Shown here: one piece after another, positions 6,412-53,946 of the stretch
Numbering within the stretch: the stretch's first letter is position 1
Layout: every line of letters begins with the position of its first letter
NCBI RefSeq assembly: GCF_002104995.1
Contig: NW_024468249.1
Location: forward strand, 2,914,001-2,978,000
Origin: Linderina pennispora
Taxonomy: Eukaryota > Kickxellomycota > Kickxellomycetes > Kickxellales > Kickxellaceae
DNA: 64,000 nt
Reading direction: 5' to 3'
Notes under the pieces: model-generated
The model's database searches: none
Told to the model about the DNA's origin: nothing
The model's input: the letters and a program-made list of their open reading frames with translations, nothing else
Position numbers and translations under genes: made by a program

Positions 6412-6577
6412 CTAGAAATACTCTGCTCGCGATGCGAGCTCGGCTACTAGTCAGCATGGGCTGACACGTCGATAAGAGCACCACGGCGAACTGGTCATTT
6501 GAACATGTCGGATGGTTGTTGGTGCAATGGCGATCATGGACATCTCCCATCTTGATGGCCTACTCAGTGCAGGCGCT
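6412..6577 (-). ncRNA. Candidate guide-RNA scaffold at element 3' end, copy 1
   Basis: The segment between the Fanzor stop and the terminal hairpin/CTAG is strongly conserved in all four copies although the proteins are broken. In TnpB and Fanzor systems the guide RNA scaffold overlaps this end of the element and the guide comes from the flank. That this segment is transcribed is inference. Retention could also reflect only the transposase recognition end. Confidence 0.35.
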
Positions 6578-7139
6578 TCAGCGCTGGTTCGCTGCTACAT
6601 GCCTCTTGCGCGGCCTCTTTGTTGCCGGTGTGGTGCCAGAAGCATTGGCAGCAATGGCCGTAGACCGACAGAACCGTTCAGGAATACTGCCTGAATCACA
6701 GAGTGACTGGAAAATGAGTCTGAAGTTTAGAACTGCTGCGAGATCGCGGTTCAAGAGCCGAGACGAATAGGCCCGCCTGTATTGTGCCATGGCCCGCTTA
6801 CATGACTCGCTTGTACAGCGGAGAAGGCCATGGCACTTCACAGTTGGGTTTTTCGATCTCTGGTAGGGCCGCGGGTTGGGAACATGCCGGAATGTCTGCT
6901 GCTGCAGCCGATGCACCTGCAAGTGAATCGGCCGTTACTGCTGCAGGTGCTGCAGTGGCCTCTGTTTCATCTGATGGCATCTTCGCTGCTTCGCGTGCAG
7001 CCTTCTTGGCCAATTTTTCGCCCTTTTCTGCTGCTTTCCTTGCCTCTGTTGCTACCCTCTTTGCTGCACTGATCTTGGTAACCTGCTCGCGTGTTTTCGA
7101 AATAAACGCCTGCTTGATTATTTGCTTGTCTAAGCGCAC
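6578..7139 (-). pseudogene. Fanzor C-terminal fragment, copy 1, internally deleted
   Basis: Beyond the break, one frame reads RLDKQIIKQAFISK and an Ala/Lys-rich helix. After an internal deletion a second frame gives the second half of the zinc finger (CHGLLRC-x4-C) and the RuvC-III motif LLNRDLAAVLNF with its Asp. The segment with the RuvC-II Glu and the first CxxC of the finger (present in copies 2 and 3) is absent, as is any RuvC-I Asp. The fragment cannot be an active nuclease. It ends at a stop at 6578. Confidence 0.75.
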
Positions 7140-8014
7140 ATGGCCTGGGATCTATGATGTCCGCAGAGGCAAGCATTGGGGGGGGGAGACTTGCCAAGCT
7201 GCTCATTCTCGATAAGCTGGCATAGACGAATGTATGCACGCAGATGCTTAAGTGGATTTACCTTGGCATCATAGTATCGGCTGTCTTTGGCAAATCTGTA
7301 CTTGGCATCATAGGCATTGAGGACTGGTGCCAGCTTGTTGTAGATTGCAAGCATCGGTGGGGTGAGCACACTGAGGTCAGGGTGCCTAGAGGCAACTGCC
7401 TGGCGGAGCTTCTGTGCAGGTGTATAAATACACACTTGACATGCATTATTGAACTCAGCCTTGGACACATTGCCCATTGTACTGTGCAGTGTGTTTTTGC
7501 GGCTGCGAATATCAATCAATTTGGCCAGAATCCGCTGTAGGCAAGTGCCATAGTGCAACACAATATTGTTCTTGTATGCTGTTAGCAGCTCGGTATCAAC
7601 ATATGTTGCTACTTGATTCATGTCGCATACACCATGTAGCTCGATATCGCCATTATGCAATAGATAATCATAAATATGGTATCTAACTACATCACCGAAA
7701 TCTGCACTCGACAGTTTTGACTTGTCCTTCCGGTTGACGAAGTCCTCGGCAGATATGACAGTCTTCGCCTTCAGGTTGCAATAAATGAATAAATAAATAA
7801 AACGAAAAAAACCCTTTTTCACAAATGTTGCTGGGTCAAAAGCATCATTGTCAGCTAGTTGATGGAGTAGTATCCATCGTGCAAGCATGTATGTATGCTC
7901 TTTGATGATATTGACGCTGTGTACAAATTGCTCTAGGCGGGGCAACATAGAATAACCGAAGCCAATACCACCAAGTGATGTCTTTATGGCAGTAGTGCTG
8001 CAGGTAATGTTCAT
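7130..8014 (-). pseudogene. Fanzor N-terminal half, copy 1
   Basis: A 294-codon frame from ATG 8014 encodes the N-terminal recognition part of a Fanzor-like protein, about 91% identical to the frame at 40526-41407. It ends in a basic region (DSRYYDAKVNPLKHLRAY) that in Fanzors leads into a P-L-R-T-x-x-I-P segment. Here that segment is encoded in another frame just beyond a run of nine C, followed by TAG (P-L-R-T-S-stop-I-P-G-H-V-R-L-D). The frame therefore closes at a spurious stop in the wrong register. It may still make a truncated protein. Family assignment rests on my recognition of the C-terminal motifs downstream. Confidence 0.75.
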
Positions 8015-8770
8015 TTGAGAAATCCAATAGGCAAGTAAGAAGAGAAATGATGCTGTTCAGTTTTGCTTTATTGCGTATGCATAGCATCAAGAACTTTTTA
8101 TTAAAAATGATCTGGCTTGCATGGTTCTTGGGGCCCTTAGCACTGATACAGTCTCTTGAATAAGTCTATACAGACTGGGTCTATTGTGGCCCAAATACTA
8201 CCGCTTACGCATGTTCATAAGACAAATTAATTTATAAAATAAACCCACAAATATTGCATGGCCGCTAGAAGAGCTATATGGCCCTATTCAATAGGTGCTC
8301 ATAAACAAATATCCTAAGAGTGTTGCGCAGCCGGTGATGACCACCATGATGATGCCATGGAAGTTATCAGGCCAACCGACAATGAGAGCAGCTCTTGTGC
8401 TGAACCAATGGAGATATCTAGTAGAGACCTGTGACCACTACAATACCAGCTCGTCACCCTGGTTTCACCGATGAGGTCAGATACCGCACAAAATCAAAAG
8501 GAGTTTACAGAGCAAACCACCCAAACTCGTGTTGAAGCTCAAAAGAGTTTTATTTGTTTAATAAAAAGGTTCTAGCGGACGGCCGGACACTTTTTCGACT
8601 ATAAAATCTTATATATAGGTGAAGACACGGCGATGTGCATTATTTACGAAAGCACTGAGCAAGGCTGCCAGAACAAGTCCTGGGGAATAGCCTGTTCGGC
8701 ACTGGCAACACGATTTCATGGGGATACTGTCCATATCAGTTTTAACGACATATCTCGACGACATAACTAG

Positions 8771-9460
8771 CTACTCGATCCTGGTGACAGCGTTCTCGGT
8801 AATGATCTTGTACAGCCGACCGCTCTCGCATTTGTCCTGAGCACCTGCCCACTTGTACAGCAGCTGCGCGACATCCTCCAGCGGCGTCCACGACGAAGTA
8901 TCGGCACCTGGCATGCCAGCACGGTTTCCGGGGGTATCCAAAGTAACCGGCAGGATCCCCACCACGCTCCCGTCAACACCGCTGTCGGCCATAGCTAGGC
9001 TCTTCACCATCTGGTGCACAGCAGCCTTGGCCATTCCATAGCCGATCATGCCCGGGGTTCCGGCCAGCGCAGGCACGGCGCCGGTCAGCGCCAGCAGACC
9101 GCCCTGACGCATGTGCAGGGCAGCAAGATTGGCCGCGATGATTGACGTGTTGATAGACTGCTTGATCGAGAGGTCGGCGTTGGCCAGGAACTCGGCGCTC
9201 TTTGCGCTGCCGCCCTGCCAGCCGCCGGCCACGCACAGCACGGCGTCGACCTGGGAGCCTTGCAGGAATGCGGCTAGCTGGGTCTGCACGTGCTGGCCCT
9301 GCTGCGGCAGATCGTGGTCGGGCGACACGGTGATGCTGTGGTCAGCGGACACGTTGGCAGCAATGTCGATGCTGATGACCCTCCAGGCCTGCTGCTTGAA
9401 GTACTTGACGATGGCGGCTCCAAGCGCGCCGCGGCCTCCGTAGACGATCACTGACTGCAT
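8771..9460 (-). CDS. QDPR: Dihydropteridine reductase (QDPR-like short-chain dehydrogenase)
   Basis: This short-chain dehydrogenase of 229 residues should reduce quinonoid dihydropterin with NAD(P)H. The N-terminus has the nucleotide-binding YGGRGALG (residues 7-14), the mid-section has LCVAGGWQGG (75-84), and the catalytic pair is Y141-x3-K145. The compact length and the motif wording fit QDPR better than general SDRs. Start ATG 9460 places the Rossmann strand directly at the N-terminus; the frame opens at 9529 but without a better start. In fungi it may salvage pterins or folate-like compounds. Confidence 0.85.
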   Translation of the reverse strand: MQSVIVYGGRGALGAAIVKYFKQQAWRVISIDIAANVSADHSITVSPDHDLPQQGQHVQTQLAAFLQGSQVDAVLCVAGGWQGGSAKSAEFLANADLSIKQSINTSIIAANLAALHMRQGGLLALTGAVPALAGTPGMIGYGMAKAAVHQMVKSLAMADSGVDGSVVGILPVTLDTPGNRAGMPGADTSSWTPLEDVAQLLYKWAGAQDKCESGRLYKIITENAVTRIE

Positions 9461-9652
9461 GGTTGTGTTAGTATAGTGCGAGGCTGGGATGGAGTGAAGT
9501 AGAGATGCAAGGAGGGGTTTATTTGCCAATGGAGCTCAGGGGGTGGGGCTATTTAAGAAGGAAACGCGCGGCGGGCACCTGCTCCTGAGACTGCTGGTGT
9601 TTCCCACGGCCAGCGATCCGCCCTAAACCAGGAACCTGCCGCTTACGGTAGG

Positions 9653-10297
9653 TCACGCACGGCTCACATACATCGCCTGGTCGATGTCGACGATGATTGT
9701 CTCTCCTGGCTTGATAAAGTCGGGCACCGTCACCTTGGCGCCGTTCTCCAGGATAGCCGGCACATATGTGGCTCCCTTGTCCTTGGCAACGCGAACCTCG
9801 ACGCTGCGCACCTTGTACGCATGCCGTGCTGGCAGCCGCCACGAGATCGGTCCGAGCTCAGGATCCAGCACCTGCACCACCACGTCCATGCCGTCCTCCA
9901 GGAAGGCCATCTTGTCTTTGCCGCCCTCGAGGTTCTCCAGCGGCATGCTCAGCTCCTCGAACGTCTGCATGTCCATCAGATGTGCCTTCGACTCGTCGCT
10001 GTACAGGTGCTGGAAGTCCCGCTGGATCAGCGTCATCACCTCGAACTCGTCGCTGCCGCGGAACCGCACCTGGGTACGTGCGCCTGTCACCGCGTGCTTC
10101 ATTGTGAGCTTGATCACCGCCGCCCCGCGGCCTGTGCCGCCGTGGTCCTTGCCCACCACGATCTGGGGCGTGTTCTGGTAGTCGATCACCTGTCCGATGC
10201 GCACCGCATTGGGACCCACCATGAGGAACCGCCGCGCTGCTGTTGACGGTGCCCGCAGGGGAGTCCGTGGAAAGTGTGCCAAGGCCGAGCGGAACAT
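9653..10297 (-). CDS. Mitochondrial elongation factor P
   Basis: The 214-residue protein has an Arg/Ser-rich presequence (about 1-25). Three EF-P domains follow: KOW-like N-domain, central OB fold and C-terminal OB fold, with the signature WRLPARHAYKV and a conserved end VPDFIKPGETIIVDI. Bacterial EF-P relieves ribosome stalling at polyproline, and this copy presumably does so in mitochondria. The loop that carries modified Lys34 in E. coli reads HGGTGRGAA here, with Arg57 at the Lys position by my alignment. It is divergent from the C2 gene across 307 bp. Confidence 0.9.
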   Translation of the reverse strand: MFRSALAHFPRTPLRAPSTAARRFLMVGPNAVRIGQVIDYQNTPQIVVGKDHGGTGRGAAVIKLTMKHAVTGARTQVRFRGSDEFEVMTLIQRDFQHLYSDESKAHLMDMQTFEELSMPLENLEGGKDKMAFLEDGMDVVVQVLDPELGPISWRLPARHAYKVRSVEVRVAKDKGATYVPAILENGAKVTVPDFIKPGETIIVDIDQAMYVSRA

Positions 10298-10604
10298 GTT
10301 CGAATTGGAAGAAGCCGCTGATTTTGAAATAGTAGGGGAACTGCGCGTGAGATAAGCAACCGTCAGAAATCAGAAAACAAAAAAAAAACATCCCCTCGCA
10401 TTTGTGCGCTGCATCTTCAAACAATGGGGGCGATTTTTCGCTGCTGACAACCCACATGGCGCCCGCATTTTTGGTGAACCCTGCCTCTTTTTCCTCTTCT
10501 CCTTCGACCTCGTTAACCCGCCCTTTCTCGCACACCTTCTCTGCTCCGCCTTTTTTGTTTTCCACTTTACACTTCACACTGTTACTCGCAGAACGCAAAG
10601 AACC
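10298..10604. promoter_or_regulatory. Shared divergent promoter, EF-P / C2 protein
   Basis: The 307-bp spacer separates two divergent start codons and must serve both genes. An A-run lies at 10377-10388, and the side facing the C2 gene is a long pyrimidine-rich leader (about 10485-10600). No clear TATA box is seen. Confidence 0.5.
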
Positions 10605-12696
10605 ATGTCTTCCGCCGTTGCCAGTGCAGAGGGCAAGCTGGAGGTGCACATAATTGGCGGCCGCAATCTGCCCAACCGCACTCGCTTCGGCAAGCAGGAC
10701 TCGATAGTCGAGCTTGCCATCGGCACGACCAAGAAGCGGACCCAGGTCGACAAAAAGGGCGGTGCCACGCCGCAGTGGAACGACCGCCTGTTTTTCTCCA
10801 TCGGCGGGCTCGGGAAGACCCAGCTGATGGTCAGGGCGCTGGAGCTCGACGGCCCCCACAAGTTTGAGGATATTGGGTCGTGCGTGGTCGACCTGGCGAG
10901 GATCTTTGAGGAGGAGGAGGTTGACGGTAAGTCATTTTGGTGTGAGACCATTCCACGGCCCTTGGCTGCCAGTGGCCGAACCCCGCACAGGCTGTTCGAT
11001 GTGCAAGGGAGTTTGCCTAGAACGCTGCCAGAGGCACCTTGGATTTCATCCAGCGAGCATGCAGGTCCTGTTTGGAAGCTGGCCAAGCATCTATTTTGTC
11101 TCGGAAAGGAATTTACCTGAAGCTACGCAACATCTAACACGTTCCAGGCTATTTTTAGGATGGTATGCGCTGAAGCATAAAGAGAGGCCTGCTGGTCAGA
11201 TCTACATCGAGTTCACCTACACGCCAAGGGTAAGAGAGATGCATTCTGCAAGAGTGGCAACAGGAAATCACCGGTCTCGCTGGCGGACTCTGCAATGACA
11301 GCAGCAGTCACCCGCAAACATGTATTCTGACATGCACAATCTATCGCTGCTCGTGTAGGATGGCCGGAAACGACCCAGCAAAGCGGATCTTGCGGAGGAA
11401 GACGAGCTCGACACAACGATTCCGGCTGTGGCCCCGAAGGTCAGCACACCGGCCGATACATTGGCATCAGCGCCCTCGCCGCTGCCGCCCCAAACCCTCA
11501 ATGGTAATTCTCAGCCAGGCACGGCAAACACTGCCCCGTCAGGGAAGGCTTCTGGTGCCCCTGCGCGGCCAGCGCTGAGCGAGGTGCGGCCGTACTCGTC
11601 TGCCTCAGGGTACCGACCCGAGCTGGTTGCCCAGTACGCCAACAAGCACGGCAAGAAGCCACTGCCAGTGCCGGTGGCCAGCGGGACGATTTCAGGCGGC
11701 ATGCCACCGGCCATGATGCCCATGGGCACGCAGTTTGGCCAGACCATGCTGCCGGGCCAATTTGCTATGGGCCAGCCCAACATGTTCGGGACCATGGCCA
11801 ATAATGTGAGTCAGCCTGTGGTCCCCGTACCACCCATGGCCGGAATGCAAGGCCAGGTGCCGCAGCCCATGGGAACCCCGCAGCTAATGAACCTGTTCTC
11901 GCCCCCAAACTCTAGCGACATGGCTGTGCAGGGAAAGGTGCTGCCACAGCCGCCAGAGCCCGTGCCGGCATTCAACCCGGCGTATATGGGCGCCAGCATT
12001 GCTGCCCAGCCAGCGGCGGCTGCACCACCTGCCCCGTCAAAGGTCTTGCCTCAACCACCAGTCGCTCCCAACAGCCGAGTCACCAACATGGGTCTCGCTG
12101 ATCAGCCTGCCGGATATCCAGCGCCTAACCAGTCTCCAGGCCACATCCAGCAGCAGCCAATGGTTCAGCAGCAGCCACCGCCACAGCCACAGCAGATTAT
12201 GACGATGTCGCAGCCGGCCAACATGTCGAGTATCAGCCTGCCGCAGATGCAGTTTCCGAACGATTCAATGATGTTTGTGCCCGACCCGATGATGTCCAAT
12301 GCTGGCGGATTCATTCCTGGTGGTGCCACGCCTGTGCCTATGATGATGATGCAAGGCCAACCACAGATCCAGCAGATGACAGCGGCTTCACAAATGCAGC
12401 TACAACCGGCCATCTACGGCACTATGCAGCCGCAGATGCAGACCATGTACCAGCAAGCCGACCTGCAAATGCAGATGGTGCCCCCCCAGATGGTGCCCCC
12501 CCAGATGATGCAACCCCAGATGATGTACCCGCCCGGCGCCGTGCCTGATCCTAGTGCCCCACCAATGATGATGTCGTATGAGAACCTACAGTTCTCCCAG
12601 CCAAATTTCCAGCAACCGCAGCAGCCACAGCAGCCGCAGCCGCAATTCAACCCGGCTGCCTATGGAATGCAGCAGCAGTACTACCCGTCGTCATAG
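10605..12696 (+). CDS. C2-domain protein with Pro/Gln/Met-rich tail (Inn1/Fic1-like)
   Basis: Three exons: 10605-10926, 11159-11229 and 11359-12696 (GT-AG introns of 232 and 129 nt; the first has a CTAAC branch site near 11134), giving 576 residues. Exons 1-2 encode one C2 domain (KLEVHIIGGRNLPN through IYIEFTYTPR) that would bind membrane phospholipid. The rest is disordered and Pro/Gln/Met-rich with two KVLPQPP motifs. A C2 domain followed by a proline-rich tail is the plan of yeast Inn1 and fission yeast Fic1, which couple septum formation to the cytokinetic ring through SH3 partners. This assignment rests on architecture only. Confidence 0.75.
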
Positions 12697-13026
12697 GAAG
12701 TAGATAATCAAGACATACATGCACTGCCCCTTGTAGATGATATTTAAAATGCTGTTCTTTTTCTCCAAAACCTAAACCCCATCGTTCTTGCAATGCTATA
12801 CACCATAAACCATCGCCAATGCATCTGAAAAAGGGACCAGCCGAGTGCGCCTGGTGGCCCGTGAGCTGGAACAAGGCCGCGGCTCAGGCGGTTCGCGATG
12901 ACCGCATCGGGAGGATTGTGTGGCCATTTGGGCTGCTGATTTTCTCGCACTCTTTTCTGTCTCCGCAACTGCTCAAATTTCAGACCTTTTGCATTTACAA
13001 TCTCTGTTGACGCGTGCAGACGAAAA
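12697..13026. other. Spacer between C2 gene and VMA6
   Basis: The stretch should hold the 3' end of the C2 gene and the VMA6 promoter. A T-rich leader ends just before the VMA6 ATG. No other gene is supported. Confidence 0.5.
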
Positions 13027-14186: not shown

Positions 14187-14325
14187 ACACCATATATAAC
14201 CACCTATATTCCCCATATCAGCTTTGGCGCTCTGGCTCCCCTCAGACCTGTTGCCTTTTCTTACCTAGTATCAATTTCTCTAACGTTTTCTTAATGTGGA
14301 ACACTACCATCGTATGCAAGACATG

Positions 14326-14727: not shown

Positions 14728-14908
14728 GGCGAGGAGATAAATGATATTGAAATTTGAAATGAGGCCTGAGAAAGAGTGTGTGGAGCGGTGTGTGGAAGAC
14801 CTTTATATAGCCCTGCCAAGCTGCACCCCTGTGATTCATCGAACTGAGCTGCTGCCACTAATGTCTTCAACATCATACTTGTGCACAGCTGCTGCCTAAA
14901 CACGCTAT

Positions 14909-27129: not shown

Positions 27130-27162
<33 letters not shown>

Positions 27163-30560: not shown

Positions 30561-30726
30561 TTAGACCTACTTTGCACGCGATGTGAGCTCGGCTGCTGGT
30601 CAGCATGGTTTGACACGTCGATAAAAGCATCACAGCGAACCGGTCATTTGAACGTGTCGGATGGTTGTTGGTGCAATGTCGATCATGGACATCTCCCACC
30701 TTGGTGGCCTGCTCAGCGCGGGCGTT
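30561..30726 (-). ncRNA. Candidate guide-RNA scaffold, copy 2
   Basis: This copy of the conserved 3' segment shows two changes in the terminal hairpin stem (relative to copies 1, 3 and 4) that break pairs. If the hairpin is needed for activity this copy is likely inert. Transcription is not shown. Confidence 0.25.
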
Positions 30727-31167
30727 TCAGCGCTGGTTCGCTGCTGCTGGCAACAGAATCGCCTGCTGCTGTACGCCTCTTGCGCAGCCTCTTTGTTGCC
30801 GGAGTGGTGCCAGAAGCATTGGCAGCAATGGCCGTAGAACGGTGGAACTATTCAGAAACACCTCCTGAATCACAGAGTGACTGGAAACGAGTCTGAAGTT
30901 TAGAACTGCTGCGAGATCGCGGTTCAAGAGCCGAGACGAATAGGCCCGCCTGTATTGTGCCATGGCCCGCTTACATGACTCGCTTGTACAGCGGAGAAGG
31001 CCATGGCACTTCACAGTTGGGTTCTTCGATTTCTGGTAGGGCCGCGGGTTGGGAACATACCAGAATATCTGCAGCAACTTTTCGCAGCAGAACGGGCACA
31101 TCGACGATGTCCGGAATTCGTCGATCCACAATATACGAAGGAGTAAAGGCAAATAAGGCTTTAACAT
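30727..31167 (-). pseudogene. Fanzor C-terminal domain, copy 2
   Basis: This frame keeps the RuvC-II Glu in IDEFRTSSMCPFC, all zinc-finger cysteines (CPFC ... CHGLLRC-x4-C) and the RuvC-III Asp in NRDLAAVLNF. It lacks the whole N-terminal half and RuvC-I. After the RuvC-III motif the frame diverges from copies 1 and 3, which indicates a frameshift. It cannot be an active nuclease. Confidence 0.75.
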
Positions 31168-31387
31168 ATGGCTCCAGGTTCGATTTTACCAGTGGCTTTA
31201 ATATATATTTAACCCCTCAAGGTCTGAATCCATTTACTTAAAGAGAGGCTGCTATTTTTAAGAGTTCACAGAGCGAGCCATGCATACTCACTGTGAGGCT
31301 CAAAAGAGCATAAATCCTTCCAGTCAATAAAAAATACTCTAGCGGACGGTTGAACATTTTTTTGGAGTATAAAGCTTATATTGCGGA

Positions 31388-31611
31388 GTTATCTCGGACG
31401 TAGCCTTTCTGCTGCTTAGAACCAACCTTTCACACCTCAGAAACTACTGCGTATTAATACAACAATCAATGAATATTGCCTAATGTTGACTGCCCAGTTG
31501 CACTGCTTTGCAGGCACAATGCGGATTTAATAACCAGCACAAGAACGTTGGTGATAAAAATACTCTTGGTTTGGCTATATGCTCTGTGTGCTAATTCAAC
31601 CGAGCAGCAGA
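31388..31611. other. Short spacer after element copy 2
   Basis: AT-moderate sequence between the mobile element and the stop of the LPMO-like pseudogene. Nothing recognised. Confidence 0.4.
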
Positions 31612-37340: not shown

Positions 37341-38400
37341 GCTGTGCCGGGCCAGCGGTGCACCAGAGTGCAGGCGACTAGAGCCGCCAGCACGAAGAGG
37401 TAATAACATTTCTTATGGAAAAAGGTCCCTGATAGTGTGCAATAAATAAAGAGGAAAAGGGGCGTCGTGGTGGGAACGAGGGACTCTTACAATGCACAGC
37501 CGGGAGCCGCTGAAAGCTTTTATATATATGTTCGCCACACCCCCTCTTCTTGCCTCCCTCCCTCCCCACTTGCCATTCCCATGAGATCCATTAAAGAGAT
37601 TCTTCTGCAGCACCTTCCGCTGCATTTACTCCCAAACATGCCTATGAGAAAATGCTCAAAATCAGAACACCAGGCATTCTATAGAGCCAAATCCTTATGC
37701 ATCAGGACAGGTAGGAGAATACAGCACTGGTGTCGATCGTGTCCGGTTTTTGAAACGGCTTTAAACCCCCCGTGCGACCCACGCTATGTTGCCCAGCATG
37801 CACTATGCGGTCATGGCTTGTGCCTGAGCGGCAATCAACTACGTCATGCTTGATTTTGTTAACGACTTTTGCTGGGTGCTGATTTGTCCAGAAAATCGAT
37901 TTTGGCCTAAAGCAATCAGCAGCTAATTCCCTGATTCTGATTGGCTGGACCCGAGTCTGTGGCAATGACCGAGTGTAGGGCAGGTATACGACTCCCCCAA
38001 AAGCCGGTGTTTGGGGACATGACTACGCGGTGGATAGCCCTCAACATGCTAGACAGAGATTATAATGTGCGGTGGAAGAAAAGAGTAGCTATGCTTGCAA
38101 ATACCCAGTATGCTTTCTTCGGTCGGATTCGCCAGTGTAATTGATGTCGTGCAACTACAGCAGCATCGGCACACTGGGCAAATTCCTATACTATGCTAGT
38201 ATATACCGACCAATACTATACCACCAGTTCTTCCTGTATATTTTATACCTTTTGCGCAATATCATAAACTTTCAACGGTGGAAATGGCACAAAGAACTAT
38301 GCAATTTGTTGTGTCTTGGGTATGATACTCTTAGATAGACAGCTTCCTGCAACTGTCTGGAATACGTTTACTCTCCAGGCGCCTTTCCACAGCATATATT
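37341..38400. other. Gene-poor spacer upstream of the P5 ATPase
   Basis: The part next to 37341 is the ATPase promoter. Around 37710-37830 a short frame reads R-R-I-Q-H-W-C-R-S-C-P-V-F-E, which resembles the Cys/His end of LINE reverse transcriptases, but it is too short to call. No intact gene. Confidence 0.35.
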
Positions 38401-38784
38401 GAACGTATGAAATATGGTATATGAAAGAACGAAGGAGGAATCGCCAGGCGAAAAGGGTGGGTGCCTATCTAAATAGTGGTGCTGGCTGCCTGGAATAGTA
38501 TAGCTGGCCATTGTGGCCTAAGGGTCTTGATCCATGGGTTCTTGAAATCATAAGGATTTAGAACTATATTTTTGCTTGTAGTATAGTAAAGAAATCTGTG
38601 CCAACTATGAGCATAGACCACTTGTGGCTAGATTTAAATAAACACTATATGGTACAGCAGAAACATATAAGCCATATTGATTGCCATTGCTAGTGCTTCC
38701 TTTCTGAACACATAATTCTCTATTAAGATGCTTATAACTATTATGCTTAGGCTTTTGTCTTTTCAAGTGAACAGAGAGAGAGAG

Positions 38785-38815
<31 letters not shown>

Positions 38816-39585
38816 ACTGATGTTAATAAGGATATTCCTAGGCTATATACTAGTATAATTTTATATCTGATATATGCCCAGAGTCCTAAGACTATACATA
38901 CTTTATTTATAAAAGGAACTAAATCCTAGTTATATTCTTACTATGAACATTTTCTATTATTAGAAGCAATTTGTATATAGCTATATATTAGCCTCACTGA
39001 TATATAAGGAATAGCTATTAACCTAGAGGATGAGTAGTTAATAGGTATATAGACAAAGCAACTCTATAAAAATAACTAATTAGAAGTAGGGAAGATAATA
39101 ATCTGTCTAGGATATTATATATATTAGCCTTATCTATAATGACATAAAGGGACTCTAGACCCTAAATTTCAATAGTAATACTATTATATCAGTCAACTGT
39201 ATAGGGGTTTTTAAAAGGTATATTTAATACTAAAGAAAAGAGAGAAAAGGGAATAGACAAGTTATGCAGGGGAGTTTTTAATACTGCTATCTATGCAACT
39301 TATCAGAGGCTAGACTCTACCTCTATATCATAGGCTGTAGCAGGGCTCTTATTGGCACCTGGATTTCTATCACCTGATTCGGCTGACATGTTAATGTTAG
39401 GGACAGCCACATTAGGCATGCAACAATACTAAGATTATCAATTAATTATTTATACTAGGATGCTATTAGTATATGTGAGGTAATCAAATATATAGTTTTA
39501 TAAGAATAGTATATAAAAAGTAAGCAAGTAGTGAATAGTAGCCTTATAGCTTATTAGTTTTATAAAAGCAGCTTGAATCAATATA
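38401..39585. repeat. AT-rich decayed block
   Basis: The GC content drops sharply compared with the rest of the window; TA, TAT and ATA steps dominate and no frame longer than 60 codons exists. It includes an (AG)n(AT)n microsatellite. It looks like old repeat sequence decayed by C-to-T change, but the source element cannot be named. Confidence 0.6.
38773..38815. repeat. (AG)n(AT)n microsatellite
   Basis: About eight AG units followed directly by about thirteen AT units. Confidence 0.95.
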
Positions 39586-40045
39586 GGAGGTCATTCAGAG
39601 TTAGTTATCTGCATAAAAATTATATATACATGTTTAAACTATTGGCAATTTCAGTGAAATAAAAATTTCACCCAAACTGCTATTGGCATCTTAGAAAAGT
39701 TTCAGTGAATATAATTTCCTTATGATTGCTTAGCTACATCTATTGAGATATTGACTTTTGTTACCCAATGATAATTAACCCCTAATATGCAAAATTTTTC
39801 TTTCTAGTTGAAATTATATTCACTAAAACTTTTCCAAGATGCCAATGGTAGTTTGGGTAAAATGGCAAAAAAAATATTTGTATTTTTAAAATCAATTATA
39901 CTCACAAAAACATTCTGGACACAGTAATTAATAATAACTATGAAAAAATAATTAGTAGTAAAAAATAGTTCTGAAAATGATTATTTAAAAATCTATCCAA
40001 CAAAATTGAAAATTACTAAAATTTACAAATCCTAGAATGACCCCC
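39586..40045. mobile_element. Fold-back MITE
   Basis: Ends are GGAGGTCATTC (39586-39596) and its near-perfect inverse GAATGACCCCC (40035-40045), flanked on both sides by ATA as a possible target duplication. Inside are two long inverted arms, 39671-39718 and 39810-39857 (48 bp, four mismatches), which would fold into a hairpin with a loop of about 90 nt. There is no coding capacity. It is a non-autonomous DNA element of unknown superfamily. A further GAGGTCATTC lies at 40056-40065, next to the start of Fanzor copy 3. Confidence 0.75.
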
Positions 40046-40525
40046 ATAATATATAGAGGTCATTCATAACACTAAACTAGGGTGATAAGTTATTATTATA
40101 GTAGTCACAGGTTTCTACTAGATACCTTCATTGATTCAGCATAAGAGCTGTTCTCATTATTAGTCAGCCTAATTACTTCTATGGAATCATCATAGTAGTC
40201 ATCATTAGCTATATAATACTCTTAAGATATTTATTTATATGCATCTATTGAATAAGGACATATGGCTCTTCTAGCAGTCATGTAATATTTGTGGATTTAT
40301 CTTATAAATTAATTTGTCTTATGAACATGTGTAAGCAGTAGTATTTGGGCTATAATGGACCCAGTCTGTATAGACTGATTCAAGAGACTGTATCAGTGCT
40401 AAGGGCCCTATGAACCATGCAAGCCAGATCATTATTAATAAAAAGTTCTTAATGCTATGCATACGCAATAAAGCAAAACTGAACAGCATCATTTCTCTTC
40501 TTACTTTGCCTACCGAATTTCTCAA

Positions 40526-41407
40526 ATGAATATTACCCGCAGCACTACTGTCATAAAGACATCACTTGGTGGTATTGGCTTCCGTGATTCTATGTTGCCC
40601 CGCCTAGAGCAATTTGTACACAGCGTCAATATCATCAAAGAGCATACATACATGCTTGCACGATGGATATTACTCCATCAACTAGCTTATGATGATGCTT
40701 TTGACCATTCAATACTTGTGAAAAAGGGATTATTTCGTTTTATTTATTTATTCATATACCACAACCTGAAGGCGAAGACTGTCATATCTACCAAGGATTT
40801 CGTCAACCGGAAGGACAAGTCAGAACTGTCGAGCGCAGATTTTGGTGATGTAGTTAGATATCATATTTATGATTATCTATTGCATAATGGCGATATCGAG
40901 CTACATGGTGTACGTGAAATGAATCAAGTAGCAACATACGTGGATACCAAGCTGATGACAGCATACAAGAACAATATTGTGTTGCACTATGGCACTTGCA
41001 TACAGCGGATTCTGGCCAAATTGATTGATGTTCGCAGCCGTAAAAACACACTGCACAATACAATGGGCAATGTGTCCAATGCTGAGTTCAATAACGCATG
41101 TCAAGTGTGTATCTATACACCTGCACAGAAGCTCCGCCAGGCAGTTGCCTCTAGGCACCCTGATCTCAGTGTGCTCGCCCCGCCGATGCTTGCAATCTAC
41201 AACAAGCTGGCACCAGTCCTTAATGCCTATGATGCCAAGTACACATTCGCCAAAGATAGCCGATACTATGATGCCAAGGTAAATCCACTTAAGCATCTGC
41301 GTGCATACATTCACCTATGCCAGCTTATTGAGAATGAGCAGCTTGGCAAGTCTCCCCCCAATGGTTGCCTCTGCGGACATCATAGATCCCAGGCCATGTG
41401 CGCTTAG
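40526..41407 (+). pseudogene. Fanzor N-terminal half, copy 3
   Basis: A 293-codon frame, about 91% identical to copy 1 and ending at the same wrong-register stop after LCGHHRSQAMCA. The C run before the break has six C here and nine in copy 1, so the difference is a whole codon and both are out of frame. The P-L-R-T-S-TAG-I-P context is identical. A truncated protein could be made. The high protein identity despite decayed flanks is worth a selection test. Confidence 0.75.
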
Positions 41408-41975
41408 ACAAGCAAATAATCAAGCAGGTGTTTATTTCGAAAACACGTGAGGAGGTTATCAAGATCAATGCAGCAAAGAGGGCAGCAACAGAGGCAAGGA
41501 AAGCAGCAGAAAGGGGAGAAAATTGGCCAAGAAGGCTGCACACAACTTTGAAGTCTATCTGATCGACGAATTCCGGACATCGTCGATGTGCCCGTTCTGC
41601 TGCGAAAGGTCGCTGCAGACATTCCGGCATGTTCACAATCTACGGCCCTACCAGAGATCGAAGAACCCAACTGTAAAGTGCCATGGCCTTCTCCGCTGTA
41701 CAAGCGAGTCATGTAAGCGGGCCATGGCACAATACAGGCGAGCCTATTCGTCTCGGCTCGTGAACCGCGATCTTGCAGCAGTTCTAAACTTCAGACTCGT
41801 TTTCCAGTCACTCTGTGATTCAGGCAGTATTCCTGAACGGTTCTGTCGTTCTACGGCCATTGCTGCCAATGCTTCCGGCACCACCCCTGCAACAAAGAGG
41901 TCGCGCAAGAGGCGTGCAGCAGCAGGCGATTCTGTTGCCAGCAGCAGCGAACCAGCACTGAAACGCCTGCCCTGA
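41408..41975 (+). pseudogene. Fanzor C-terminal part, copy 3
   Basis: After RLDKQIIKQ and a Lys/Ala helix, one base is missing near 41518 compared with copy 1. The frame then reads VYLIDEFRTSSMCPFC (RuvC-II Glu and first zinc pair), CHGLLRC-x4-C and VNRDLAAVLNF (RuvC-III Asp). It ends in a basic tail RSRKRR that may be a nuclear signal. The middle part with RuvC-I is missing; compared with copy 1 a different internal piece has been deleted. Confidence 0.75.
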
Positions 41976-42127
41976 GCAGGCTATCAAGATGGGAGATGTC
42001 CATGATCGCCACTGCACCAACAACCATCCGACACGTTCAAATGACCAGTTCGCCGTGATGCTCGTATCGACATGTCAACCCATGCTGACTAGCAGCCGAG
42101 CTCGCATCGCGAGCAGGGCAATTCTAG
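41976..42127 (+). ncRNA. Candidate guide-RNA scaffold, copy 3
   Basis: Best preserved 3' segment, 152 nt from the stop codon to CTAG with a perfect terminal hairpin. Matches copy 4 closely over its full length. In Fanzor and TnpB loci this is where the scaffold lies, with the guide read from the right flank. Here the element end would place the guide from 42128 on. Inference only. Confidence 0.35.
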
Positions 42128-46826: not shown

Positions 46827-46960
46827 TGCTGCAAGATAATGATGCCAGCAAGCTTTTTTGAAATCCAGGCAATACCACAAGGTGCAAAGTGGCCACGTCG
46901 GCTTGAAATATATTTCCGTGAAAATTCTGCTTTTGTGAATCTGCATATTTATTCATAGCC

Positions 46961-49188: not shown

Positions 49189-51888
49189 ATGGCCTTATAT
49201 GTAGACGCCACCGAGAGTCCACTTGGAATCCTGGCATCGCTGGCATCTCCGCCAGTCATGACCAGCACGTCAAAGCAGCAGCACGAGTCGGAGATGCCAG
49301 CAATGCTGCATGTCGAGTCGCGGCGAGGCTCGCTTGGTACGCATTCTGGATCACCGTCGCCGCCCAACTCACCCAGCACACGGGCTGCAATGCGGCTGGA
49401 CCAAAAAACACCCAAACCACACCTCTCGCACGCTATCAGCGAAGGTACGGGTTTGCAGGAAGCAAAAGCGGACAGCGCAGCAGTGGACATCGCACACAAC
49501 GTGTCAGAGCCTGGGTCGCTAGTGCCAGTGTCAGTGGCGTCTGCAATTCCAGCTAGTCAGCTGGATGTGTTAGCGCTTGTCACAGCAACAAGCCCACCAC
49601 TACCAGGACGCCGGCGGTGGATGGCACACAACACACCAAAGCCTGCGTTTGCAAGATCTGGCTTGTCGCAGAATGTCACCCCAGCACGGTTGCTAACTAG
49701 AAATGGTGATGGTGCTGAGGACAGCGGTAGCGATACAGTATCGGAGGACGAACAGACATTGCGGTCGTATAGCGCGCGGCTGAGATCCCGATACCACAGT
49801 GCGAATCTGCGGCCATCACCTAGTATGCCTAGGGGATCATCAAGGGAGCCGTCAGAGGGGACATCTGATCTGCAGCTGGCTGAGCCAGCTATGCCTGCTA
49901 GTGACCGGATAGCCAGAAATCGCACCGTTTATTCCATTACTGGTATTGGGAGGCCCCCGCTGCCCATGTCGGCTACTGCGTTGCGCACAAGTAGACGAGG
50001 CGGGTACCCGCAAAACACCAGTGGTTACCAGCAGCAGAGACCCGGCAATGGCGAATCAACAGATGATGAAGACGAGCCAGTACTGATGCAAGCCCTGACC
50101 ACCCCGCGACGTAATATCACTCCGACGCACCGGATGCACGAATTAAGCGAACCGCCAAGACTCCCAACATCAGCTGAGCGACGCACATACCGCACACCAG
50201 CCCACCCATCAGCACGCGGCCTGCAGATGCTACCACGGTCCTTGAATCCATCTTTGGGCAGCTTCATTGAGTCACCAGCATCGGAGCCCGTGATGCGCCG
50301 GCGGCTGCCTCGGTACCGTCATCGCGTGCATGCAGAGGGAACTGAGAATGTCAGCGCACTTCCAGGCACAAGCACAGAGGAGGTAGAGGGCTACTACGAT
50401 GATGATGACGACGACGACGATGGGTATTCAAACGGTTCACCAATGCCGCTGTCGCCATCATGTCGGCAGCAGAGCATGGAAGTTCCGCGCGCATACAGAC
50501 ACGCAAGAGCGCATCGATCATTGGTTGCAGAAATCGGTTCCAATGTGTCTAACCAGTTTCTAGGCTCGGAGACCGATCAGTCCATGGCCACGAGTGCCAT
50601 AGACGAGGCAGGCGTCGATGTAATCACGGCGGATGACAGCGACCAGCTAGAGCCACCTCACAACACCACAATATCTGGTGAGACCACCGAGAGTGCCGAC
50701 ATGCAGTTCTTTGTCAATCGACCATACACCACGGTCCGACGATCCATTGGCAGTCTGATAGACCAGACCAACGGCCTGCAGCCCACTGCTGAATCCCCGC
50801 ATAGCGGAAACTCTATTAGCGCAGAACGACTTGAGCTCAGGCGTCCGATAGATGTAGCGAATGGCTACGAGGATGATGGGTCCACTACTGAGACCGACGA
50901 CGAATTCTTTACACGTCCAAAGCGTGCTCTGCATGCCAGTATTCGTCCACCACGACGGGTTGTACGCCACTTGGAGACACTGCGATCCCACCATCCTCCG
51001 CCGGCAGTCTTGCGCTTGCAGCAAATGAAAATACCAGCACATTACTCCATGGTGCAGAAGCAGCACCTGCCGCTGCTGGGGCGCAGTCGCATGGGTTCGG
51101 TGGGGTCCATGTGCCCGCCTGCCTCACGCACTGCGCCATCGACCAGCGGGTTTGGACTGGGTGTTAGCAACGCTGACAGTCTCTCCAACACTGAGCCCGC
51201 GCAGCGTGTGTCGTCGGTGCCGTCGTCAAATTCTGCAACTGCGGCCTTAGCTGCCATGGCACAGGCTGACGACAGACGTAGCCCAGAGCGTATCCCACGA
51301 TACATTCGCCGGCAGCAACATCAGCCATCAATAGTCGTGCAGACAAGCTATGTGCCACAGCGACCCGAGGGCATAGATAGGTCAACGGAGGCTAGCCGCA
51401 AGCGCGCACTGACTGCCCCATCGTTGCTCGAGTCGCCAATGGCTAAGCGGTCACGCTACATTGGCACCGAGCCTACGCTGCATTCGTCAGATGAAGAGTC
51501 CGCCAACCCGCAGTCGCCACTGGCGCTGCGCACTCCGCTGGCTAGTCGAGTGAGTATGCCAGGCGTATCGCCAGTGTCCTCGCTGCGGTCGTCTCTGGTC
51601 AGCAGCAGGGGCCCACCGCAGCCCCGACTGAATCACACTGGCTCTCCGATCTGCCAGAATAAGGACGCTCAACAAGACTCTGGGGGCTCGCCCAGCATTA
51701 GCACCGCCCAGCATCTGCCCAAGCGCACACATTCACAGGCCAGCCGGTCACCGTGTAGCGCGCACTCGCCGGGCAGCGAGTCAAGAGACAGGGTCAGCCC
51801 CAAGTCGGCAACGCCGTCGTCACCATCACTAGTGTCAAATGTGTCGAGTGATGCGCTGTTACCGCCAATCAGCCCGGCTGACGACTAA
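49189..51888 (+). CDS. Large disordered Ser/Pro/Thr-rich protein of unknown function
   Basis: The 899-residue protein has no recognisable fold. The N-terminus has a short hydrophobic motif, ESPLGILASLASPP, of a kind seen in transcription regulators. A poly-Asp run (about residues 403-410) and many S-P and T-P sites suggest phosphorylation by CDK or MAPK. Basic patches (RRRLPRYRHR, AKRSRY) may act as nuclear signals. The continuous, intact frame of this length and its codon use support a true gene. Nuclear regulator is a guess. A hidden upstream exon cannot be excluded. Confidence 0.7.
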   Translation: MALYVDATESPLGILASLASPPVMTSTSKQQHESEMPAMLHVESRRGSLGTHSGSPSPPNSPSTRAAMRLDQKTPKPHLSHAISEGTGLQEAKADSAAVDIAHNVSEPGSLVPVSVASAIPASQLDVLALVTATSPPLPGRRRWMAHNTPKPAFARSGLSQNVTPARLLTRNGDGAEDSGSDTVSEDEQTLRSYSARLRSRYHSANLRPSPSMPRGSSREPSEGTSDLQLAEPAMPASDRIARNRTVYSITGIGRPPLPMSATALRTSRRGGYPQNTSGYQQQRPGNGESTDDEDEPVLMQALTTPRRNITPTHRMHELSEPPRLPTSAERRTYRTPAHPSARGLQMLPRSLNPSLGSFIESPASEPVMRRRLPRYRHRVHAEGTENVSALPGTSTEEVEGYYDDDDDDDDGYSNGSPMPLSPSCRQQSMEVPRAYRHARAHRSLVAEIGSNVSNQFLGSETDQSMATSAIDEAGVDVITADDSDQLEPPHNTTISGETTESADMQFFVNRPYTTVRRSIGSLIDQTNGLQPTAESPHSGNSISAERLELRRPIDVANGYEDDGSTTETDDEFFTRPKRALHASIRPPRRVVRHLETLRSHHPPPAVLRLQQMKIPAHYSMVQKQHLPLLGRSRMGSVGSMCPPASRTAPSTSGFGLGVSNADSLSNTEPAQRVSSVPSSNSATAALAAMAQADDRRSPERIPRYIRRQQHQPSIVVQTSYVPQRPEGIDRSTEASRKRALTAPSLLESPMAKRSRYIGTEPTLHSSDEESANPQSPLALRTPLASRVSMPGVSPVSSLRSSLVSSRGPPQPRLNHTGSPICQNKDAQQDSGGSPSISTAQHLPKRTHSQASRSPCSAHSPGSESRDRVSPKSATPSSPSLVSNVSSDALLPPISPADD

Positions 51889-52353
51889 GTGCCGCTCTAG
51901 GATCACTAAGAGCCACACTATTCTTTCGCTCTAGATGGACATGCAATTTGGATATCCTCATCAGCGAAAAAAGAGTATCGAAAAAAAGGTCAGCTTCAAG
52001 TAAAGAGTCGTCATGAACCCCGTTTGTCTAGGGTCCTTTCCGAGCTTGACTCATAAATGACTCATCATCCCCAGAGCTGGCATCGAACGCCCGATCTCCA
52101 CCGACCAGAGCGGCGGAGCGCGCGCGCAACCAGTCCCTGGTAGAATTTCAGGACAGAGTGATATCAATGCCTCGCTGGAAAAGGAGAAATGTAGAGTATA
52201 TCAAGGGCAAGGTCGGGGGTTGAGCGGAGACTTGGACAAACCATATTCCTCCGACCGCGGCTGACAACGGCAAAAGAATGCCAGCATTGGATTTTGGCAT
52301 GCACCACAATAGCACAGTATTTTATCCTGTATCAGTGGCTTCCCTTCACTAGC
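51889..52353. other. Spacer between disordered protein gene and PPT1
   Basis: Contains the 3' end of the former and the PPT1 promoter. A tRNA-like stretch near 52080-52150 was checked and rejected. No gene is supported. Confidence 0.45.
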
Positions 52354-53289
52354 ATGCAGCTCTTTTCTACCCTTTCACTTTCGTACGCCCTGGCAGTGAC
52401 ATCAGCAGCAGCAGCAGGCTTATCTGGAATGCATGCGCCGGTCATTCTCTGGCATGGCATGGGAGATACCTGCTGCAATAATGATACGATGGGCTGGGTC
52501 GCACAAATAGTCTCAGACGAGCTTCCTGGTGCCTTTGTGCACTCAGTGCGGATCGGCAACAGCGAGAATGCTGATCAGAATGCTGGATTCTTCGGCAACC
52601 TGAACACCCAGCTTGAGCAGGTGTGCAACGACTTGGCTGGCATCCCAGAGCTACACCAGGACGTCAATATGATAGGATTCTCGCAAGGTGGGCTGTTTCT
52701 GCGTGCCTTGGTCCAGCGCTGTACTTGGCTGCAGCCCAAGGTTCTTCTAACGTTTGGATCTCCGCATATGGGTGTGGCTAAAGTTCCTGAGTGCACCGAT
52801 CCAAGCTCAGCCATGTGCCGGTGGATGCGCCAGCTGGCCAGCAAGGGTGTGTACTCGTGGTATATCCGTGACCATGTGGTTCAGGCACAGTACTTTAAAG
52901 ATCCTGCTCGCCTCAGCCAGTACTTGCAGTACAGCATATTTTTGCCCGACATCAACAACGAGCTCGACAAGAAGAATGAGCAATATAAGAAGCGCCTGAG
53001 TAGCCTCGAAGGACTCGTGCTCGTGCAGTTCAGCGAAGAGCAGATGATCTCTCCGCCTGGGTCAGCATGGTTTGGGTTCACTGACGAAGATGGAAACGAT
53101 ATACCTGTGCAGAATACGACCATGTACAAGGAAGACTGGCTTGGACTACGCAAGCTTCATCAGGCAAACAAAGTCGAGTTTGAGATGATCGATGGCCCGC
53201 ATATGAGCATCGCAGAAGATGTTTTGCGCAGGCTGGTCTCCAAGCACTTTGCTGCCAACAAGGATTCTCACCTATTCCGCATCCAATAA
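52354..53289 (+). CDS. PPT1: Palmitoyl-protein thioesterase
   Basis: PPT1 cleaves palmitate from cysteines of proteins in the lysosome or vacuole. The 311-residue precursor has a signal peptide (1-20, ending near SAAAA), followed by the alpha/beta-hydrolase fold: VILWHGMGDTCC, nucleophile S110 in IGFSQGG, FGSPHMGV, and the catalytic His at 283 in DGPHMS. EDWLGLRKL near the C-terminal third holds the likely Asp. Six or more Cys fit disulfides of the secreted enzyme. ATG 52354 begins the signal peptide. No introns. Confidence 0.95.
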   Translation: MQLFSTLSLSYALAVTSAAAAGLSGMHAPVILWHGMGDTCCNNDTMGWVAQIVSDELPGAFVHSVRIGNSENADQNAGFFGNLNTQLEQVCNDLAGIPELHQDVNMIGFSQGGLFLRALVQRCTWLQPKVLLTFGSPHMGVAKVPECTDPSSAMCRWMRQLASKGVYSWYIRDHVVQAQYFKDPARLSQYLQYSIFLPDINNELDKKNEQYKKRLSSLEGLVLVQFSEEQMISPPGSAWFGFTDEDGNDIPVQNTTMYKEDWLGLRKLHQANKVEFEMIDGPHMSIAEDVLRRLVSKHFAANKDSHLFRIQ

Positions 53290-53512
53290 ATTCTAAAACA
53301 GATTATGCTGGTGGCCTAGAGCACATCGTGGAAGATGTAGGGCGGTAGATAGCGGCAATGCCAAATGAGAGGAAAGAGATTAATAACGTGAGCACCTGAC
53401 ATGGGTATGTATTTACTTTCGTGTAATGCGAGTCCCGAATGTGTCTTTGAACAGTGGCTAATATGCCCTTGCACCTCTATCAGAGACTGAAGAGCTCAGT
53501 GGTGGAGGGAGT
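53290..53512. other. Short spacer between PPT1 and element copy 4
   Basis: 223 bp of unremarkable sequence; the 3' end of PPT1. Confidence 0.4.
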
Positions 53513-53946
53513 GTCATGGCCTTCTCCGCTGTACAAGCGAGTCATGTAAGCGGGCCATGGCACAATACAGGCGGGCCTATTCGTCTCGGCTCTTGAACCG
53601 CAGTCTCGCAGCAGTTCTAAACTTCAGACTCATTTTCCAGTCACTCTATGATTCAGGCGGTGTTTCTGGATAGTTCTGCCGTTCTACGGCTATTGCTGCC
53701 GATGCTTCTGGCACCACCCCGGCAACGAAGAGGCCGCGCAAGAGGCGTGCAGCAGCAGGCGATTCTGTTGCCAGCAGCAGCGAGCCAGCGCTGAGCAGAC
53801 CATCAAGACAGGAGATGTCCAAGATCACCGTTCCACTAACAACAGTCGAACACGTTCAAATGATCGGTTCGCCGTGATGCTCTTATCGACGTGTCAACCC
53901 ATGCTGACTAGCAGCCGAGCTCGCATCGCGAGCAAAGTAATCCCAG
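53513..53946 (+). mobile_element. Helitron-like Fanzor element, copy 4, 3' fragment
   Basis: A 434-bp 3' fragment that starts abruptly inside the zinc-finger region. It has a perfect terminal hairpin (53919-53933), the same 9-nt spacer length and CCAG at 53943-53946 in place of CTAG, followed by T. The protein remnant (LLNRSLAAVLNF) has lost the RuvC-III Asp (to Ser), and a stop soon follows. The 3' non-coding segment is nearly as well kept as in copy 3. Confidence 0.8.
53795..53946 (+). ncRNA. Candidate guide-RNA scaffold, copy 4
   Basis: Copy of the conserved 3' segment with an intact hairpin, in a fragment that encodes no usable protein. It would be a trans-acting scaffold at most. Expression unknown. 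Confidence 0.25.

What the first reader, a model, noticed from the sequence alone, without database searches (positions are those of the whole stretch)
6412..53946. Four copies of a Fanzor-carrying Helitron family in one window
All four copies carry pieces of a protein with the Fanzor/TnpB C-terminal pattern (IDEFRTSSMCPFC, CHGLLRC-x4-C, NRDLAAVLNF). All share a 3' end made of the hairpin GCTCGC-ATC-GCGAGC, exactly 9 nt, then CTAG, CTAG, CTAA or CCAG, each followed by T. Hairpin plus CTRR-T is the Helitron 3' signature. Fanzor1 proteins are known to be captured by several DNA transposon superfamilies; I believe Helitrons are among them. A Fanzor/Helitron family with this set of ends in such a fungus seems worth describing, and the four aligned ends here give the right boundary to the base.
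Basis: partly seen in the sequence, partly recalled or inferred. Interest (0 to 1): 0.85.

Follow-up and report, generated by a model that had tools for sequence, protein, structure and literature searches.

The report
Fanzor-carrying Helitron family in a fungus
This fungal genome holds a large family of rolling-circle jumping genes (Helitrons) that carry a Fanzor, the eukaryotic relative of CRISPR nucleases, together with a matching transposase element joined to it end to end, which makes it a good place to ask what Fanzors do for jumping genes.

Summary
The four copies are real, partial members of a large family. The 3' hairpin occurs 224 times in the 26.2-Mb genome (reversed control 1); the host is Linderina pennispora or close to it. 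Full copies are 3.2-3.4 kb: A|TC(TTTACC)...hairpin-(8 or 9 nt)-CTAG|TA. Two of three joined-flank searches found uninterrupted empty sites: insertion into A|T without target duplication, canonical Helitron1 behaviour. The gene is a Fanzor1: 9 full-length stop-free frames among 52 scored candidates, D/E/D triad and C4 zinc finger, Parasitella Fanzor1 as best match by sequence (E=2e-83) and fold, dN/dS 0.23-0.39 in 21 of 27 pairs. A RepHel partner has HUH and Y2 motifs, the same 5' motif and a like hairpin end; all 8 RepHel-type 3' ends found abut a Fanzor element at CTAG|T. The layout resembles IS605 tnpA+tnpB, by analogy only. Fanzor1 in Helitrons is known (Chlamydomonas, Helitron2 type); the canonical-end, RepHel-joined arrangement looks new. 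Fanzor-driven homing is plausible but inferred; no conserved omega-RNA fold was found.

The parts
6412..8625 (-). Copy 1: both ends kept (5' G|TCTTCACC at 8625, 3' CTAG at 6412-6415, next base T), with an internal deletion of about 1 kb near 6893 that removes RuvC-I and the IDEF motif
6425..6439 (-). 3' hairpin GCTCGC-ATC-GCGAGC of copy 1
7130..8014 (-). Fanzor1 N-terminal frame, 294 codons, in copy 1; begins like the intact L072 protein
30561..31395 (-). Copy 2: decayed short copy; 3' end CTAA|T; hairpin with 2 mismatches at 30574-30588; 5' end diverged, placed by eye (similarity reaches 31381)
40074..42127 (+). Copy 3: 3' end CTAG at 42124-42127, next base T; 5' end not identified, the first 450 bp are heavily C-to-T / G-to-A changed; internal deletion of about 1 kb with breakpoints other than in copy 1
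40526..41407 (+). Fanzor1 N-terminal frame (293 codons) in copy 3
41523..41975 (+). Fanzor1 C-terminal frame (IDEF, CPFC, CHGLLRC, NRDLAAVLNF) in copy 3
42100..42114 (+). 3' hairpin of copy 3
53471..53946 (+). Copy 4: 5'-truncated copy (similarity begins between about 53471 and 53510); hairpin 53919-53933; 3' end CCAG at 53943-53946, next base T

Best explanation
A canonical (Helitron1-type) Helitron family with three kinds of member: (1) RepHel elements (about 5.5-5.6 kb in three copies), (2) Fanzor1 elements (3.2-3.4 kb when full) joined directly behind them or, mostly, alone, and (3) short derivatives. Shown: the ends, A|T insertion without target duplication at two sites, a RepHel with HUH/Y2/helicase domains and the same 5' motif, a Fanzor1 with catalytic and zinc residues kept under purifying selection, and a RepHel-CTAG|T-Fanzor joint at all 8 RepHel-type 3' ends found. 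Inferred: RepHel peels and pastes all members, in trans or as a composite; the internal 5' end lets the Fanzor half move on its own. Inferred with less certainty: the Fanzor uses an RNA from the element's 3' end whose guide starts right after CTAG (TA...), and cuts the empty allele next to the short left-flank motif (T)A, so that repair copies the element back. Because the insertion splits that motif from the guide match, the occupied allele would be spared.
For: Ends. Flanks: A at -1 in 31 of 36 parsed 5' ends (43 found, 5 unparsed, 2 near-duplicates dropped; of the five non-A, L025 and L038 are parsing shifts and L015 is a RepHel joint); T at +1 in 44 of 45 and A at +2 in 43 of 45 3' ends. 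Empty sites: L042 on C221 (220 aligned to 220, 94%) and L046 on C136 (220 aligned to 221, 92%). RepHel: PF14214 then PF05970 on one strand; EFQKRGLPHTHILL (HUH) and VKYLFKYVYKG (Y2) in L082 (motif names recalled). The 30-base 5' motif stands, without mismatch, 1.7-1.9 kb before the Rep match in 6 of 6 family loci. Joint: 8 of 8 RepHel-type 3' ends lie 11-15 nt before a Fanzor-type 5' motif, 5 of them 15 nt, the length of an undamaged end; three were read in letters (L015, L016, L079), five by coordinates. A composite with an internally deleted RepHel has a left border CCA|TCTTTACC (L016). Fanzor. Selection: dN/dS 0.23-0.39 in 21 of 27 pairs.
Against: No conserved RNA fold at the 3' end: of 20 z-scores (4 copies, 5 lengths) 19 lie between -1.7 and +0.7, one at -2.6; only 1-3 pairs with changes on both sides in 25 copies. 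No RepHel copy was shown to be intact: each of the six family loci has a stop in a scored stretch, no helicase match, or a gap of over 5 kb inside. Shared 5' sequence is short: a motif about 75-110 nt in is found 56 times and at none of the 6 RepHel 5' ends, and the outermost 15 bases of a RepHel unit were read only in L016. Movement of the composite as one unit rests on one border read in letters; segmental duplication is not excluded for the other seven joints. dN/dS was 0.41-0.46 in the two pairs with L063 and 0.62-0.68 in the four with L054 or L077, which I take for misalignment over deletions; pairs are not independent. The 3' end of L060 is followed by C, and the 5' end of window copy 1 is preceded by G. 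All guide and TAM statements are by analogy with published Fanzor and TnpB.
Confidence: 0.75

Rival explanations
1. The Fanzor is a passenger: a captured gene amplified by RepHel with no role in mobility; most copies are decaying fossils.
For: Of 16 long copies scanned for frames only 2 had a full one, and most rows of the genome search are partial or carry stops; no conserved 3' RNA fold; Helitrons capture genes (PMC4289320, start of abstract in a listing).
Against: 9 full-length stop-free frames, L072 itself and eight at 93-95% identity to it, catalytic D/E/D and C4 kept in L072 and dN/dS 0.23-0.39 in 21 of 27 pairs mean the protein was selected for while the family spread. No RepHel-type 3' end was found without a Fanzor element behind it.
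Confidence: 0.2
2. The RepHel-Fanzor joints are dead tandem insertions or segmental duplicates, not a mobile unit; Fanzor elements are moved only in trans as separate elements.
For: Each half has its own 5' motif and 3' hairpin end; tandem Helitrons are known from bat, fly, rice and maize (PMC5148889 passages); contigs 92-100% alike suggest duplicated or alternative-haplotype sequence.
Against: 8 of 8 RepHel-type 3' ends found are joined; where the joint was read undamaged (L015) the base before the Fanzor TC is the G of CTAG, not the A of ordinary insertions; the L016 composite has its own A|TC left border.
Confidence: 0.35
3. A cut-and-paste DNA transposon with TA target duplication (Tc1/mariner-like), since TA often stands on both sides.
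For: A follows the T in 43 of 45 3' ends and T precedes the A in many 5' ends (T at -2 in 23 of 36); Fanzor1 is known in Mariner elements (PMC3627910, passages).
Against: Empty sites keep both TAs: about 220 bp, not 218. No terminal inverted repeat: the longest inverted word shared by first 40 and last 90 nt is 5 nt in 5 of 5 copies tested. The partner is a RepHel.
Confidence: 0.02

Closest known systems
CRe-1, CRe-2, CRe-3 of Chlamydomonas reinhardtii (Fanzor1 in non-autonomous Helitron2; Bao and Jurka 2013, PMC3627910, passages read)
   Same: Fanzor1-only elements sharing ends with Helitrons of the same genome; many copies; many 5'-truncated and internally deleted copies with intact 3' ends
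   Different: Those are Helitron2: insertion after TTTT, 5' hairpin, asymmetric terminal inverted repeats, frequent target duplications of about 7-19 bp, Fanzor in 5 or 10 exons. Here: Helitron1 ends (TC...CTRR), A|T, no duplication at two tested sites, Fanzor in one frame, RepHel directly joined to the Fanzor element
Mothra family of rice (Helitron carrying RPA but no RepHel; PMC4683698, passages read)
   Same: An accessory-gene Helitron that shares termini with an autonomous sister family; TC and CTAG ends
   Different: Accessory gene is RPA, not an RNA-guided nuclease; no fixed end-to-end joint in the passages read
Parasitella parasitica Fanzor1 (PpFz1, PDB 9cf0-9cf3; PMC11423790, passages read)
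   Same: Closest solved relative (E=2e-83; Foldseek 1.8e-40 and 1.1e-38); same triad; published TAM 5'-ATN-3' is short and AT-rich
   Different: Our protein has an Ala-rich and a Gly/Asp repeat insert of its own; the FRI cyclophilin-binding insertion was not tested for
IS200/IS605 with tnpA and tnpB, and tnpB-only relatives (recalled, and as described in PMC10432273, passages read)
   Same: HUH transposase plus TnpB-family nuclease next to each other, and nuclease-only elements with the same ends
   Different: Y2 RepHel with helicase against Y1 TnpA; each half here has its own ends; eukaryotic; analogy, not membership
FoHeli elements of Fusarium oxysporum (PMC5148889, passages read)
   Same: Fungal Helitrons with multiple or duplicated 5' termini
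   Different: Helitron2-like termini; no Fanzor in the passages read

Membership tests
Helitron1 (canonical Helitron) | 5' end TC | tested here: met
   5' border A|TCTTT(T)ACC in most copies read
Helitron1 (canonical Helitron) | 3' subterminal hairpin followed by CTRR | tested here: met
   119 exact hairpin + 9 nt + CTRR-T, control 0; of 45 3' ends read CTAG 36, CTGG 6, CTAA 1, CTTG 1, CCAG 1; spacer 9 nt in 41, 8 nt in 4
Helitron1 (canonical Helitron) | Insertion between A and T, no target duplication | tested here: met
   2 empty sites from 3 searches; the third was uninformative; letters of the empty sites could not be read
Helitron1 (canonical Helitron) | RepHel protein (HUH, Y2 Rep and PIF1-like helicase) in a partner with the same ends | tested here: met
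   a fully intact autonomous copy was not demonstrated
Helitron1 (canonical Helitron) | RepHel falls in the Helitron1 clade of a phylogeny | not tested
   only parts of RepHel could be read
Helitron2 | 5' hairpin, asymmetric terminal inverted repeats, TTTT target | tested here: not met
   5' 60-nt folds -0.2 to -2.8 kcal/mol with DNA parameters, longest 5'/3' inverted word 5 nt in 5 of 5 copies; target A|TA
Fanzor1 | D-X(125,275)-[TS][TS]xx-C4 zinc finger-X(5,50)-RD (as given in PMC3627910) | tested here: met
   L072: D526, then T734-S735, C738/C742/C774/C779, R797-D798; E731 invariant; D798 is D in 17 and N in 5 of 22 aligned proteins
Fanzor1 | Sequence and fold of solved Fanzor1 | tested here: met
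   the model has mean pLDDT 73
Fanzor1 | Pfam TNB or NCBIfam TnpB profile over its cut-off | tested here: not met
   L072 16.6 bits against 26.3, L074 no match; window piece 13.6 against 100 in NCBIfam. Relatives P0002, P0042 and P0001 also stay below the Pfam cut-off (17.8, 14.9, 16.9), so it does not separate
Fanzor1 | Omega-RNA from the 3' end of the element | tested here: inconclusive
   no z-score or covariation support; expression data not available
Fanzor1 | RNA-guided DNA cleavage | not testable with these tools
   needs biochemistry

The most novel reading that the evidence does not exclude
The family is a eukaryotic counterpart of IS605: an HUH transposase (RepHel) and an RNA-guided nuclease (Fanzor1) joined into one mobile unit through an internal CTAG|TC end, from which nuclease-only elements are launched. 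The Helitron's own insertion rule, A|TA, doubles as the Fanzor's target rule (TAM = left flank, guide = right flank), so the nuclease cuts exactly the sites where the element could be lost and copies it back.
Probability: 0.35. Interest if true: 0.85.

Novelty: new variant of a known kind. Interest (0 to 1): 0.62.

Why it matters
The biological role of Fanzor is stated as unknown in the 2023 Nature paper, which itself points to Helitrons as a possible parallel to IS605 peel-and-paste (PMC10432273, passages read). This genome offers what that question needs: exact ends, a RepHel partner, nine full-length stop-free Fanzor frames, and occupied and empty versions of the same sites in one assembly. 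It also puts canonical Helitron ends with Fanzor in a fungus, whereas the Helitron example in the passages I read is an alga with Helitron2 ends.

Tried and rejected
Tc1/mariner with TA duplication: spoken against by empty sites. Helitron2: ends do not fit. Target duplications in 12 5'-truncated or short copies: longest shared words 5-7 nt, or none of 5 or more. Conserved omega-RNA fold in 25 copies: no clear support. Pfam and NCBIfam naming of the window fragments: below cut-off. Empty site for L077: its left flank is itself a repeat, no spanning match. The first protein search, with words from the N-terminal 500 residues, found one relative; residues 500-866 found 140 (120 listed), the named ones mainly Coemansia and Mucorales. 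My first parse of 3' ends required T after the tetranucleotide, which made T at +1 circular; I recounted without that rule. Literature: Fanzor with Helitron in 4 papers, Fanzor with Coemansia in 0, other searches; in the listings and passages seen I found no description of this family, but only open-licence papers are held and I did not search Repbase.
Full report
What was checked. The window is C1:2914001-2978000 of an unnamed 26.2-Mb genome in 222 contigs. A window gene (59359-61038 +) is 98% identical, over 55% of its length, to a Linderina pennispora protein, next best Martensiomyces at 72%, so the host is that fungus (Kickxellales, lineage recalled) or close to it. The hairpin GCTCGCATCGCGAGC occurs at four places in the window allowing 2 mismatches, three exact, and 224 times in the genome allowing 1 mismatch, against 1 for the reversed pattern. 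Hairpin, any 9 bases and CTRR-T occur exactly 119 times, control 0.

Anatomy of the element. I fetched 40 of the 224 hairpin places with about 3.9 kb upstream; 30 5' places and 8 hairpin places came as loci of searches. Alignment to one full copy (L043) gives a sharp 5' border and a 3' border after CTAG. In 23 copies with both ends placed, element lengths run from about 1.7 to 3.4 kb, full ones 3.2-3.4 kb. The window copies are all shorter: copies 1 and 3 lack about 1 kb in the middle with different breakpoints, copies 2 and 4 keep little more than the 3' part.

Borders. The 5' border reads A|TCTTT(T)ACC, sometimes with extra TCTTTA units. Among 36 distinct parsed 5' ends (43 found, 5 not parsed, 2 near-duplicates dropped) the base before TC is A in 31; of the other five, L025 and L038 are parsing shifts, L015 is a RepHel joint, L009 is window copy 1 (G), and L059 has T. 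Among 45 3' ends read, the tetranucleotide is CTAG in 36, CTGG in 6, and CTAA, CTTG, CCAG once each; the next base is T in 44 (C in L060) and the one after is A in 43. The positions after that look like background.

Empty sites. Joining the two flanks of L042 gives a 220-base query that matches C221:17536-17755 end to end at 94% with equal length; the flanks of L046 match C136:2258-2478 (221 bases) over 1-220 at 92%. The flanks of L077 gave no spanning match, because its left flank is a repeat.

The protein. Two natural copies read here, L072 (866 aa) and L074 (867 aa), are uninterrupted. A genome search with L072 scored 52 of 570 first-look candidates and listed 9 full-length stop-free frames, L072's own among them, plus one with a single stop. 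By sequence the closest solved proteins are Parasitella parasitica Fanzor1 (E=2e-83) and Spizellomyces Fanzor1 (3.5e-35). An AlphaFold2 model (mean pLDDT 73) matches the same structures first, then Guillardia Fanzor1, then far weaker Cas12. D526 and E731 are invariant in 22 aligned proteins, D798 is D in 17 and N in 5; zinc ligands C738 and C742 are invariant, C774 and C779 miss in 1 of 22 each. N at the third position is known from GtFz1 (PMC11423790, passages). dN/dS by a simple Nei-Gojobori count was 0.23-0.39 in 21 of 27 pairs, 0.41-0.46 in the two with L063, and 0.62-0.68 in the four with L054 or L077, where deletions disturb the alignment. Pairs are not independent, but the direction is clear: purifying selection.

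The transposase partner. Rep (PF14214) gave 13 rows at 7 loci, helicase (PF05970) 10 rows. One Rep locus (C68, 1,989-codon frame) and one helicase locus (C179) score much lower and have none of this family's end motifs listed beside them; I leave them out. L082 shows the HUH motif and the Y2 motif (motif names recalled). A 30-base motif from the Fanzor element's 5' end occurs 131 times with up to 3 mismatches, control 0; 100 are listed, and among them are exact matches 1.7-1.9 kb upstream of the Rep match at all six family loci (C2, C112, C157 twice, C171, C212) on the same strand. A motif about 75-110 nt further in is found 56 times and at none of those six. So the two element kinds share the stretch up to about base 45 and the hairpin type, not more; the outermost 15 bases of a RepHel unit were read only in L016, where they are TCTTTACCTTTATAT.

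The joint. In L015 the helicase frame ends, then comes GCTTGCATCGCAAGC, 9 nt, CTAG and, with no base between, TCTTTACC of a Fanzor element. L016 and L079 show the same with worn 5' ends. A pattern for this RepHel-type 3' end (up to 3 mismatches) finds 8 places, control 0, and all 8 stand 11-15 nt before a Fanzor-type 5' motif; in 5 the gap is 15 nt, the length of an undamaged end. No free RepHel-type 3' end was found; more diverged ones would be missed. At C212 the Fanzor frame behind the joint is full length and stop-free, though the RepHel in front is split by about 13 kb. L016 is a composite whose RepHel is internally deleted, and its left border is again A|TC (CCA|TCTTTACC). RepHel length from 5' motif to joint is about 5.5-5.6 kb in three copies (C2, both C157).

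How it most likely works. RepHel nicks and peels any member with the shared ends and pastes it between A and T; this follows from the ends, the empty sites and the known chemistry of Helitrons (recalled). The joint looks like a head-to-tail rolling-circle product in which the second unit was replaced by a Fanzor element through the shared 5' bases (inference). The Fanzor then most likely acts as a homing nuclease: guide from the right flank, target motif from the left flank (inference by analogy with TnpB and with the suggestion made in PMC10432273). I looked for the expected 3' RNA and found no fold clearly better than shuffled sequence in 19 of 20 tests; this is a result against the reading, though omega-RNAs are said to vary considerably in length across species (PMC11423790, start of abstract in listing).

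What is known. Bao and Jurka described Fanzor1 in Helitron2 elements of Chlamydomonas and in other superfamilies. In the listings and passages from the open papers searched I saw no Fanzor in canonical Helitron1 with a joined RepHel, but subscription journals and Repbase reports are not held. I therefore rate it a new variant of a known kind.

Noticed in passing
window 38000-40520: AT-rich tract (GC 0.33 in 38001-40000) running into copy 3, whose first 450 bp carry 39 C-to-T/G-to-A changes against 5 of the reverse kind, most often at CpG (11 of 17) and CpA (20 of 71): a RIP-like or deamination signature.
   Followed up: partly
window 39665-39718 and 39810-39863: 54-bp inverted repeat at 91% inside the AT-rich tract, perhaps the ends of another small transposon.
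   Followed up: no
5' ends of L072, L035, L041, L042, L053, L076: The extreme 5' end is a variable array of TCTTTA hexamers (up to about 5 units); L072 and L035, which share their left flank, have 3 and 4 units. Each unit restores A|TC, so it may give several usable 5' ends.
   Followed up: partly
5' ends of L021, L029, L011: 5' ends in which the first 14-26 nt of the element are repeated before the start, like the multiple 5' termini reported for FoHeli.
   Followed up: no
L050 about 2953-3929: A ~1-kb element with the same 5' end and hairpin but no Fanzor match and a different 9-nt spacer; the 3' ~107 bp of L078 resemble those of L050 (80%) and L061 (84%).
   Followed up: partly
C68:196071-198650: A second RepHel with a 1,989-codon open frame, apparently of another family; not examined further.
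   Followed up: no
L070/L075, L014/L074, L049/L013, L052/L038, window copy 1/L012: Pairs of loci on different contigs, about 93-100% alike in the flank, that share an insertion, suggesting alternative haplotypes or duplications in the assembly.
   Followed up: partly
L072 protein residues about 444-501: A Gly/Asp/Ala repeat of variable length (GGDATGDAVGG...) lies between conserved stretches before RuvC-I and has pLDDT under 50 in the model.
   Followed up: no
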